From: Fimbriiglobus ruber
GTDB lineage: Bacteria; Planctomycetota; Planctomycetia; Gemmatales; Gemmataceae
Length of the DNA stretch: 64,000 nt
Reading direction: 5' to 3'
NCBI RefSeq assembly: GCF_002197845.1
Contig: NZ_NIDE01000005.1
Coordinates: 186,001-250,000, forward strand
Part shown: positions 29,867 through 52,532 of the stretch, piece after piece
Layout: each line of letters begins with the position of its first letter
Position numbering within the stretch: the stretch's first letter is position 1
Made by a program: the position numbers and the translations under genes
The notes under the pieces: generated by a model
Told to the model about the DNA's origin: nothing
Database searches by the model: none
Seen by the model: only the letters and a program-made list of their open reading frames with translations

Positions 29867-29947
29867 AATTTGGAGTGCGGCGCTTTACCGCCGCTTTTGC
29901 TTTTAAAAACCAGAGCAAAGCGGCGGTAAAGCGCCGCACTCCAAATT
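29867..29947. repeat. 31-bp perfect inverted repeat (GCGGCGCTTTACCGCCGC family)
   Basis: Arms at 29867-29897 and 29917-29947 pair perfectly with a 19-bp spacer, and each arm is itself partly palindromic (GGCGCTTTACCGCC). The same sequence recurs at 62622-62825. It fills the spacer between two WD40 genes and could act as a terminator for neither or both; a mobile REP- or MITE-like origin is more likely. Confidence 0.8.
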
Positions 29948-37708: not shown

Positions 37709-38332
37709 TTAGAGCGTAACGGAGCCGCCGGAGAGGATTTCGCGGAGCCGCTTCAAGGCCCGGATGTACCGCTTGCTGGCCGCGTCCTTGCTGAGTTGCA
37801 AGATCGCGGCCGTTTCGTTGTTCCCGAGTTCCTCGAAATGGCGCAGGGCCAGAACCTCGCGGTCGAGGGGGTCCATCGCGTCCAGTGCCGTCCGGAGCCG
37901 GTCCTGGAGTTCGTTGCGGATCGCGGCCTGGCTGGGCGACGTCATGGTCCCGACGAACTGCCCGGCCATCGAGTCGGCGGACGCGAACCCGGAGGGCGGT
38001 TGTGCAGACACCTCGTTGCGGGCGTCCCGCATTTTCGACCCGAGGTGCGCCCGCTGGACGATCTGGAGCCGTTGAACCGTCAAAAAGCGTACCCAAACGT
38101 AGAACGAGGCCGTCGGATCGGCGAGGTATTCGTCGACCCGGCCGGCCACGTCGAGGTAAGCTTCCTGGAGTACGTCGTCCACCGAGATGCGGCCCGCGAT
38201 CCGGCGGTCCAGCCGGACGCTGAGCATCCGCCACAGCCGCTCGCGGTACAGCTCGAACAATTCCCCGGTCGCGGCCGAATCGCCCGCCCGTATGCGGTCG
38301 AGAAGTGCCGCAGTCTGATCGGTCGAACTCAT
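37709..38332 (-). CDS. ECF-type RNA polymerase sigma factor
   Basis: A 207-residue sigma factor with region 2 (GELFELYRERLWRMLSVRLD, then GRISVDDVLQEAYLDVAGRV) and region 4 (MDPLDREVLALRHFEELGNN, then ETAAILQLSKDAASKRYIRA). It is of the planctomycete type that pairs with Ser/Thr kinases rather than with a classical anti-sigma factor. No anti-sigma gene is adjacent; the kinase gene starts 17 bp downstream and is probably cotranscribed. Its target promoters are unknown. The upstream divergent spacer contains three hairpins. Confidence 0.93.
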   Translation of the reverse strand: MSSTDQTAALLDRIRAGDSAATGELFELYRERLWRMLSVRLDRRIAGRISVDDVLQEAYLDVAGRVDEYLADPTASFYVWVRFLTVQRLQIVQRAHLGSKMRDARNEVSAQPPSGFASADSMAGQFVGTMTSPSQAAIRNELQDRLRTALDAMDPLDREVLALRHFEELGNNETAAILQLSKDAASKRYIRALKRLREILSGGSVTL

Positions 38333-38750
38333 CGTGCGCCCCCAGGCGGCCGATCCGGAGCAGCCCCCATTTTATCCGTCGGTCGAACGGCCCACGCATT
38401 GAAGCGGTAATTTTTTTCTGACGTCTTTGCTTGCTCGTCGGTCAACCTGCGGCGCGCATCTTCCCGGCGGGAAATGGCCCCGACCGTGCTTTCACAAATA
38501 TTTCCCACAATTCCAGTCCACACACGGCCCCTCCGCGCAGTAAACCCTTCAAGCACGGTCGAACGCGGAAAACGAGTGCGAGCAAAACCGAAACCACAAC
38601 CAGCCCTCCGCGACAAAACGTGGGGCCGGAATTACGATTGTCCGGTGAAAACTGAGATGGCATCGAAACACTCGATTCGCGACATATCAGCCCGCCCGGG
38701 ATCGACGGTTAGGCCTCCCGCATAAAGTGAATGATCCACCTGCAAATTAA

Positions 38751-38893
38751 AAAGTCGTAGCCGCGTTTTCATTATCTGCGGCTACGACTTTGGAAATTTG
38801 CGGCCGCCGTCGGGCTCGCCCACCCGACGGCGGCCGCGTCGTCTCACTTTGGAATTTGCGGTCGCCAGCGGTTCGCCCACCCGCTGGCGACCG
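38751..38893. other. Cluster of three covarying hairpins, possible structured RNA or repeat
   Basis: Three perfect hairpins follow one another: 38751-38764/38778-38791 (AAAGTCGTAGCCGC stem), 38800-38814/38823-38837 (GCGGCCGCCGTCGGG stem) and 38859-38871/38881-38893 (CGGTCGCCAGCGG stem). The second and third share flanks (TTTGGAA, TTTGCGG) and the loop core TCGCCCA, while their stems differ on both sides so that pairing is kept. A T7 run at 38927-38933 (after CTCTTG) could end a rightward transcript. They lie in the 860-bp spacer 38333-39192 between divergent genes; nothing else is recognisable there. Confidence 0.6.
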
Positions 38894-39192
38894 TACCCAA
38901 ACCTGCCCGCCCGACGCCCGCTCTTGTTTTTTTAAGTTAAGTGTTCGTCGACCCACTCGCACTTCGATCTTGTCATCGTAACCGGCTTATCCGACGGCGT
39001 GAGTCGGAAACCCGTACATCCGCCTTCAATTCCGCAAATCGTTCCCATCGGCTCGACACGCTACCCCGTTTCGACGCGGGCCGTTCTTCGTAAAACTCTA
39101 CGTCACAAGGCTCGCGTAACTGGTAGCGGACGGTCCGTCCGTGGCCGGGTGTCGCGAAGCCGTGCGATCCCGCGGCGTCAGGAGCTGACCGC

Positions 39193-40257
39193 ATGTTGAC
39201 GACCGAATCGATCGACCAAATTCTCACCAGCATTCCGGCCCGCACCATCGGGCTCGTCGGCGACCTCTTCCTCGACCGCTACCTCGACATCGACGCGGCC
39301 CGCAACGAGCCGTCGGTCGAAACGGGCCTGATCGCGTATCAAGTGACCCGCGTGCGGTCGTACCCCGGCGCGCTCGGGACCGTGATGAACAACCTCGCCG
39401 CGCTCGGCGTCGGCCGCATCTGCCCGATCGCGGTCATCGGCGACGACGGCGAAGGGTACGAATTACGCCAGGCACTGAGCCGGATGCCGGCGCTGGACCA
39501 GGCGGGCCTCGTCTCTGCTCCCGACCGGCGGACGCCGACGTACACCAAGCCCATGTTGGAAGAAGCCGGCCGTCCGCCCCGCGAGTTGAGCCGACTCGAC
39601 ATCAAAAACCGCACGCCGACCCCGGCGGCGCTGGAAACCGCCGTCATCGACCATATCGAACGCGCGTGGTCCCAGTTCGACGCGCTAATCGTGCTAGATC
39701 AAGTCAGTGAAGTCGATTGCGGCGTCGTCACCCGGCGGGTGCGGGAGCGGATCGCCGAGCTGGCTGCCCGCGACCCCAACAAGTTCGTGCTTGCGGACAG
39801 CCGCGAGCAGATCGGGAAGTTTCGTAACGTGTGCGTGAAGCCGAACGCCGACGAGTGCAAGAAAGCCGTCTCGCACCCCGACACGCCGGACCAGGACGAA
39901 GAAGGGCTCTTCACCGCCCGGTGCCTCGAACTCGTGCGCACGGGGGCCGTCCGGGCCGTCTTCGGAACATCCGGCGAGCGCGGCATTTACCTCGCGCGCA
40001 CGACCGCACCGGACGGCGTCGAGGGACGCTTCGTCCCCGCGTACCCGGTCTCGGGGCCGATCGACATTTGCGGGGCCGGGGACAGCTGTAGCGCCGGGAT
40101 TTCATGTGCGATGGTGGCGGGGCAAACTTACCACGACGCGGCCGCATTCGGGAATCTGGTGGCGTCGATCACGGTCCAACAAATCGGGACGACCGGCACC
40201 GCCTCGCCCGCCCAAGTGCGGCAGCGCTGGATCGACGTGGGGAAGTTCTGTAGTTGA
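39193..40257 (+). CDS. PfkB-family carbohydrate kinase, HldE/RfaE-like
   Basis: A 354-residue ribokinase-fold enzyme. The N-terminus (IGLVGDLFLDRYLDID) and SYPGALGTVMNNLAALGV match the substrate-binding part of the ADP-heptose-type kinases; the C-terminal anion-hole motif is GPIDICGAGDSCSAGIS, with Asp in GAGDS as the catalytic base. It should phosphorylate a sugar or sugar phosphate with ATP. Only the kinase half of HldE is present, with no nucleotidyltransferase domain or heptose genes nearby, so the substrate is unsure. The ATG at 39193 follows CAGGAGCTGACCGC, a good ribosome binding site. Confidence 0.88.
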   Translation: MLTTESIDQILTSIPARTIGLVGDLFLDRYLDIDAARNEPSVETGLIAYQVTRVRSYPGALGTVMNNLAALGVGRICPIAVIGDDGEGYELRQALSRMPALDQAGLVSAPDRRTPTYTKPMLEEAGRPPRELSRLDIKNRTPTPAALETAVIDHIERAWSQFDALIVLDQVSEVDCGVVTRRVRERIAELAARDPNKFVLADSREQIGKFRNVCVKPNADECKKAVSHPDTPDQDEEGLFTARCLELVRTGAVRAVFGTSGERGIYLARTTAPDGVEGRFVPAYPVSGPIDICGAGDSCSAGISCAMVAGQTYHDAAAFGNLVASITVQQIGTTGTASPAQVRQRWIDVGKFCS

Positions 40258-52419: not shown

Positions 52420-52451
52420 AAACCCCGCAAGTTCTTATCCTTGCGGGGTTT
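52420..52451 (-). terminator. Terminator downstream of tRNA-Thr
   Basis: A perfect 12-bp stem (AAACCCCGCAAG with CTTGCGGGGTTT) and an 8-base loop lie 9 bp beyond the 3' end of the tRNA gene. Confidence 0.7.
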
Positions 52452-52460
52452 TGCGTTTAA

Positions 52461-52532
52461 AGCCGCCTCAGGGATTTGAACCCTGGACCCCAGCTTTACG
52501 AAAGCTGTGCTCTACCGCTGAGCTAAGGCGGC
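52461..52532 (-). tRNA. tRNA-Thr(CGU)
   Basis: A 72-base cloverleaf on the minus strand. The acceptor stem is GCCGCCT paired with AGGCGGC and the D arm is GCTC with GAGC. The anticodon stem CAGCT/AGCTG holds the loop TTCGTAA (anticodon CGT), and the T arm is CAGGG-TTCAAAT-CCCTG. CCA is not encoded. It reads ACG codons. Confidence 0.95.

What the first reader, a model, noticed from the sequence alone, without database searches (positions are those of the whole stretch)
38742..38933. Three consecutive hairpins with compensatory changes and a terminal T run
Hairpins 2 and 3 share loop and flanks but have different stems that remain perfectly paired. Hairpin 1 has a third stem and shares the TTTGG flank. 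Covariation within one locus suggests selection on structure. A T7 run follows in the rightward direction. This could be an undescribed structured RNA or a self-copying hairpin family, and it is one of the best candidates for new biology here.
Basis: partly seen in the sequence, partly recalled or inferred. Interest (0 to 1): 0.7.

Follow-up and report, generated by a model that had tools for sequence, protein, structure and literature searches.

The report
Triple hairpin between divergent genes
Three perfect DNA hairpins lie between two genes that point away from each other; one resembles an ordinary transcription stop signal and the other two are a local duplication whose arms stayed matched, which may reflect copying within the DNA hairpin rather than a new RNA gene.

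Summary
The hairpins are real: 14, 15 and 13 perfect pairs, well beyond chance. The 'three covarying hairpins' reading is weaker. H1's arms are unrelated to those of H2 and H3, and the TTTGG flank that H1 'shares' with H2 is a single stretch between them. The covariation is H2 against H3 only: a tandem duplication with three compensated pairs. The T7 run starts 33 nt past H3. No other flanked copy was found in the own genome, no ortholog in 94 family genomes, only two weak hits in 148 phylum genomes, no Rfam match here at gathering score. One hairpin beside pyrG has H2's exact 15-bp arm. Best reading: a one-locus terminator-like palindrome array, perhaps a transcription barrier, with arms kept alike by templated DNA copying. 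Function and mechanism are inferred; transcription was not testable. The same genome holds a better case: an element with 33 forward and 34 reverse end matches whose inner hairpins differ yet pair (1043 of 1058 pairs).

The parts
38751..38791 (-). H1: 14-bp perfect hairpin, 13-nt loop; read leftward it ends in TTT of the stem followed by TTAATTT (terminator-shaped). With flanks, 38742-38748 can also pair with 38795-38801.
   Evidence: minus-strand fold -23.8 kcal/mol; 7 A in the 10 nt at its left end, 5 T in the 10 nt at its right end
38800..38837 (.). H2: 15-bp perfect GC-rich hairpin, loop CTCGCCCA, no T-tract on either side
38859..38893 (.). H3: 13-bp perfect hairpin, loop TTCGCCCAC; diverged tandem copy of H2, no T-tract on either side
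38789..38803 (+). flank TTTGGAAATTTGCGG, first direct copy; lies between H1 and H2 and runs into H2's stem
38848..38861 (+). flank TTTGGAATTTGCGG, second direct copy, between H2 and H3
38740..38753 (-). degenerate inverted copy of the flank (3 mismatches), possibly chance
38927..38933 (+). T7 run, 33 nt past H3; not adjoining a hairpin
37709..38332 (-). ECF sigma factor gene, left neighbour, reading away from the hairpins
   Evidence: Pfam Sigma70_ECF
39193..40257 (+). PfkB-family kinase gene, right neighbour, reading away from the hairpins
   Evidence: Pfam PfkB; best NCBIfam hit rfaE_dom_I, below its cut-off

Best explanation
A lineage-specific array of terminator-like palindromes in the 860-bp spacer of two divergent genes. 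H1 is shaped like an intrinsic terminator, with its better T-tract on the leftward strand, so it would stop polymerase running left toward the ECF sigma gene; the GC-rich H2 and H3 may add hindrance to transcription crossing the spacer. H3 is a tandem copy of H2 with its left flank, and its two arms changed together because one arm was re-copied from the other at the DNA level (template switching within the palindrome), with or without selection for the hairpin. Shown: hairpins, duplication, three compensated pairs, the tract, lack of found relatives. Inferred: termination, barrier role, copying mechanism.
For: H1 minus-strand stem plus T-tract. Long perfect hairpins are common at gene ends in this genome: of 185 with >=12 bp in 2.45 Mb, 55 lie between convergent genes, 23 of those with an A/T tract, against 0 of 25 within genes. 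A hairpin with H2's exact 15-bp arm, within a 19-bp stem ending in AAA/TTT, lies 24 nt after the pyrG stop codon and faces a convergent regulator gene. H2/H3 duplication and paired changes. In another element of the same genome, inner hairpin arms vary between copies yet pair, with almost no G-T, as arm copying would give. Template switching as a source of paired changes is published (PMC8794818; abstract and Discussion read).
Against: The array lies 299 bp or more from either start codon and at no gene end; divergent spacers are the less usual place (23 of 185, only 4 with tracts, H1 among them). H1's tract beyond the stem is short and broken (TTAATTT), and its right side meets my loose tract criterion too. 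H2 and H3 have no T-tract. The consensus scan found no terminator. Two sequences cannot tell copying from selection, and H3 keeps one G-U and one unmatched base. PMC8794818 itself calls the evidence for maintenance of short stems circumstantial.
Confidence: 0.5

Rival explanations
1. A leftward small RNA or leader: transcription starts right of H3, the RNA folds into H3 and H2, and H1 is its terminator, giving a structured RNA of about 200 nt.
For: Minus-strand fold z -8.6 with three separate hairpins; H1's better tract is on that strand; the spacer looks non-coding.
Against: No relative found; no sigma-70-type promoter match in 38300-39400 (other promoter types not covered); Rfam gives only a sub-threshold BTH_s1 match on this strand, 16.9 bits against a gathering score of 74.
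Confidence: 0.2
2. Remains of a low-copy mobile palindromic element, akin in kind to REPs or MITEs, partly duplicated after insertion.
For: Tandem copies with flank; H2's arm occurs in another hairpin of the genome; the genome carries other palindromic repeats and three Y1-type transposase genes.
Against: No other flanked copy; no outer inverted ends seen beyond the poor one at 38740; none of the listed places of the 67-match element lies here, though that list names only its own end sequence.
Confidence: 0.2
3. A 5' leader (attenuator-like) of the PfkB gene on the plus strand.
For: It lies upstream of PfkB on the right side: H3 ends 299 bp before the start codon.
Against: No comparable array in 25 relatives' PfkB loci, searched within 1.5 kb of the match or to the contig end; no Rfam match at gathering score; no hairpin adjoins the T7 run.
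Confidence: 0.05

Closest known systems
Intrinsic (Rho-independent) terminators
   Same: H1: GC-rich stem, then a T-tract on the minus strand
   Different: Tract short and broken, 13-nt loop, not at a gene end; H2 and H3 lack a tract
REPs / BIMEs (repetitive extragenic palindromes)
   Same: Short intergenic palindromes in a tandem array
   Different: No high copy number found; not shown to bear a GTAG or CGTC end tag; H1 has GTAG only inside its arms
Template-switch-made hairpins (PMC8794818)
   Same: Perfect stems and several paired changes together
   Different: Two sequences, no ancestral reconstruction, and intergenic bacterial DNA rather than known RNA genes
Multi-hairpin element with GGGGCTCNGCCCC ends, own genome
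   Same: Several hairpins, arms that vary yet pair
   Different: No shared end sequence, different arms and loops, dispersed rather than single-locus

Membership tests
Intrinsic terminator (H1, minus strand) | GC-rich stem followed at once by a T-tract | tested here: inconclusive
   Stem present; the tract is TTT inside the stem plus TTAATTT; the consensus scan, limited to loops of 3-8 nt, did not report it
Intrinsic terminator (H1, minus strand) | Transcription ends there | not testable with these tools
   Needs Term-seq or a reporter
Intrinsic terminator (H2, H3) | T-tract next to the stem | tested here: not met
   3 and 1 T at the right ends, 3 and 2 A at the left ends of 10 nt each
REP | High copy number in the genome (over 100 per the start of the abstract of PMC2817692, seen in listing only) | tested here: not met
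   No other flanked copy
REP | GTAG or CGTC tetranucleotide at one end (PMC3733652, passages) | tested here: inconclusive
   By eye, GTAG occurs within H1's arms, not at the hairpin's end; H2 is followed by GTCGTC; no copies to define ends
REP | RAYT (Y1-type) transposase in the genome or nearby | tested here: inconclusive
   3 Y1_Tnp matches in the genome, one on the same contig about 63 kb away; RAYT motifs not tested
Rfam families | Match at the family's gathering score | tested here: not met
   Only a tRNA at 52461-52532 in the whole window; 16.9 bits for BTH_s1, gathering 74
Conserved structured RNA | Covarying structure in several genomes | tested here: not met
   No ortholog recognised
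Multi-hairpin element of this genome | End sequence GGGGCTCNGCCCCAAACCCCGCCGGAGGGGT, up to 3 mismatches | tested here: not met
   67 places listed, none on contig C5, where the window lies
Template-switch hairpin | Several paired changes made in one event | not testable with these tools
   Needs intermediate strains or an ancestral reconstruction

The most novel reading that the evidence does not exclude
The H2/H3 covariation is not a sign of RNA function: palindrome arms in this genome are repeatedly re-copied from each other at the DNA level. The same mutational signature would run through the multi-hairpin element of this genome, where paired changes occur with almost no wobble intermediates, and it would mislead methods that take covariation as proof of a functional RNA stem.
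Probability: 0.35. Interest if true: 0.55.

Novelty: new member of a known kind. Interest (0 to 1): 0.3.

Why it matters
By itself the array is a minor, single-genome feature. Its value is a caution: compensatory changes, often taken as the best evidence for a functional RNA stem, can also arise in DNA palindromes by templated copying. The same genome offers dozens of element copies in which that can be tested properly.

Tried and rejected
Dispersed family of H1-H3 in the own genome: BLAST at E<=10 gave 44 places. Of the 30 that became loci, L001, L003 and L004 are the locus itself, L002 and L005 are one other hairpin, and the other 25 have no perfect hairpin of >=10 bp within 120 nt of the centre; several are copies of two repeated sequences. 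The other 14 places got no locus; most of them share the query span and scores of a repeated sequence, but I did not read them.

Flank pattern with up to 2 mismatches: 12 places (reversed-pattern control 6); none of the 11 others has such a hairpin nearby. H1 hairpin pattern: own locus only, 0 of 58 relatives.

Covariance model R1 was built with a wrong structure string by my error and never used for a search; R2 is the right one. Of R2's 11 places in the own genome, three are this locus and one is the pyrG-side hairpin; among the rest only L131 has a perfect hairpin of >=10 bp (11 bp), without the flank.

Relatives: the spacer matched in 4 of 58 and the hairpin stretch in 7 of 94 family genomes. 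Of these nine distinct places, L044, L221 and L224 have some perfect hairpin of >=10 bp near by, with unrelated arms; none has the flank by eye.

Synteny: in the 7 genomes where both a PfkB and an ECF hit were listed (G003, G005, G006, G013, G018, G019, G044), they lie on different contigs or, in G003, about 1.86 Mb apart. Broken contigs limit this.

Spacer ORFs of 83 and 91 aa: no Pfam match at E<=0.001, negative coding scores.

Papers: searches were seen as listings; none listed an expression study that I recognised as of this organism. That the genome is Fimbriiglobus ruber is my recall from its size; no call names it.

Mended: the reading's loci, the tract on both sides of H1, the gene names beside L002.

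Full report
WHAT IS THERE. The 860-bp spacer between an ECF sigma gene on the minus strand (37709-38332) and a PfkB-family kinase gene on the plus strand (39193-40257) holds three perfect hairpins: H1 38751-38791, H2 38800-38837, H3 38859-38893. Folded as RNA, 38740-38933 reaches z -9.8 (plus) and -8.6 (minus), with 0 of 200 shuffles as stable. In 100-nt plus-strand windows across the spacer the lowest z is -4.3 at 38733-38832; the next are -2.0 at 38833-38932 and -1.9 at 39033-39132. The structure is more than chance.

H1 is no more like H2 or H3 than shuffled sequence (p 0.92 and 0.93), while H2 and H3 are related (p 0.0005). The TTTGG 'shared' by H1 and H2 is one stretch between them; the direct copies are 38789-38803 and 38848-38861. 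So the covariation is between two sequences: three pairs changed on both sides, one G-C against G-U at the stem base, one base missing in one arm, and 29 of 29 cells with letters paired. With two rows the shuffle control is weak (75 of 500 as high); sliding the partner gives no double change at any of six offsets. My estimate for the changes meeting and pairing by chance is about 0.001. The T7 run (38927-38933) starts 33 nt past H3.

On the minus strand H1's stem ends in TTT and is followed by TTAATTT, a terminator-like shape. The tract is modest, and the plus-strand side (TTTGGAAATTT) also meets my loose criterion of 5 T in 10 nt. The consensus scan did not report it; it allows loops of 3-8 nt, and H1's loop has 13. 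H2's 15-bp arm occurs exactly in one other hairpin, at C20:492659-492694, with other loop and flanks; there the stem is 19 bp and ends in AAA/TTT. It lies 24 nt after the stop codon of a CTP synthase gene (NCBIfam PyrG, above cut-off) and faces a convergent gene that looks like a GntR-type regulator (below cut-offs). It is therefore probably a terminator.

IS IT A FAMILY? In the own genome (12.36 Mb in 20 contigs; 97% complete by its record), BLAST, flank pattern, H1 pattern and a covariance model of H2/H3 find no other flanked copy. The model scores 78.1 and 70.6 bits on the copies it was built from, 38.4 on the pyrG-side hairpin, 32.5 on the locus's other strand, and 24.9 or less on seven more. 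Outside: the spacer matches in 4 of 58 relatives and the hairpin stretch in 7 of 94 family genomes, by short, mostly GC-rich pieces of 23-43 nt. The model gives 2 of 148 phylum genomes, at 27-28 bits, and the exact pattern 0 in genome contigs. None of 25 relatives' PfkB loci has such an array within the 1.5 kb fetched on either side, less where contigs end. Rfam at gathering score finds only a tRNA elsewhere in the window.

GENOME CONTEXT. I surveyed 2.45 Mb (window included, about a fifth of the genome) with a home-made gene caller (1437 genes, 67% coding), so orientation classes are approximate. It held 185 perfect hairpins of >=12 bp: 55 convergent, 37 and 32 tandem, 23 divergent, 25 genic, 13 edge. 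A tract (>=5 A or T in the 10 nt at a stem end) was found for 23 of 55 convergent, 9 of 37 and 13 of 32 tandem, 4 of 23 divergent and 0 of 25 genic; edge cases were not counted. Long perfect hairpins are thus common at gene ends here, and H1-H3 sit in the less usual divergent class. Clusters of three or more hairpins of >=10 bp with gaps up to 80 nt number three: this one and two copies of another element (L140, L192).

A COMPARISON FROM THE SAME GENOME. That element has inverted ends GGGGCTCNGCCCCAAACCCCGCCGGAGGGGT: 33 forward and 34 reverse matches at up to 3 mismatches, 0 in the reversed-pattern control, and 0 in 94 other family genomes. I fetched 30 of 31 paired copies, leaving out one with ends 0.9 kb apart and five unpaired ends. 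Most copies have end hairpins and two inner hairpins of about 18 bp. On 29 inner hairpins of one kind, one per copy from 29 of the 30 (26 distinct rows), 98.9% of 466 cells pair; 9 of 18 pairs show changes on both sides (42 cells; shuffle mean 9.8); no cell has a one-sided change; the few others do not pair. Those rows were found by perfect pairing of at least 9 bp, which works against wobble. A recount by flank located 59 of 60 inner hairpins: 1058 pairs, 1043 Watson-Crick, 2 G-T, 13 mismatched; there arm and loop lengths were fitted for best pairing, a milder bias. Left and right ends are more alike within a copy (mean 0.959) than between copies (0.892), but a copy's own partner is best or tied in only 16 of 30. 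Paired changes with few wobble intermediates suit arm copying at the DNA level better than slow change under RNA selection. For H2/H3 this is an analogy, not proof.

BEST READING. H1 is a terminator-like hairpin, better leftward; H2/H3 are a tandem-duplicated palindrome. Together they may hinder transcription across a divergent spacer, their arms kept alike by templated copying (template switching, PMC8794818: abstract and Discussion read) and perhaps by selection. The sequence facts are shown; function and mechanism are inferred. Main rivals: a leftward small RNA ending at H1, and a low-copy mobile palindrome.

MEMBERSHIP AND NOVELTY. It works, at most, like a terminator or barrier. H2 and H3 fail the T-tract test, and the array fails the copy-number test for REPs. 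It is a new single-locus instance of a known kind of thing, intergenic hairpins.

LIMITS. No transcription data; one genome; two sequences for the covariation; home-made gene calls; the phylum search used stricter filters that lose some weak matches. PMC3733652 was seen as passages; other papers as listings.

Noticed in passing
own genome, L230-L259, e.g. G000:C1:25549-25824, C2:566170-566480, C14:172359-172646 (not in the window): A dispersed element of roughly 300-400 bp with inverted ends GGGGCTCNGCCCCAAACCCCGCCGGAGGGGT (33 forward, 34 reverse matches; 0 in 94 other family genomes) and inner hairpins whose arms vary between copies yet stay paired; the inner part occurs in either orientation. 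Among the five copies caught by the cluster scan, four lie between divergent genes.
   Followed up: partly
window 29867-29947; also L061 12386-12469, L065 2363-2453, L086 6011-6088, L167 17392-17481, L183 5034-5118: A repeated 31-38-bp perfect hairpin (core TTTGGAGTGCGGCGCTT[TG]ACCGCCGCTTT) in several places; in L065 and L167 the outermost bases differ from the other copies but still pair.
   Followed up: no
L002 1499-1540 (G000:C20, by pyrG): A 19-bp hairpin 24 nt after the pyrG stop codon contains H2's exact 15-bp arm with a different loop and flanks.
   Followed up: partly
L225 (G000:C5:161105-161443) and L057 1476-1541: One of three Y1_Tnp (PF01797) matches in the genome has a 31-bp perfect hairpin about 30 bp beyond the end of its domain match, on the side where the minus-strand gene starts.
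   Followed up: no
window 52420-52451: A 12-bp hairpin with AAA/TTT ends next to the tRNA gene at 52461-52532 (minus strand), as expected of a terminator.
   Followed up: no
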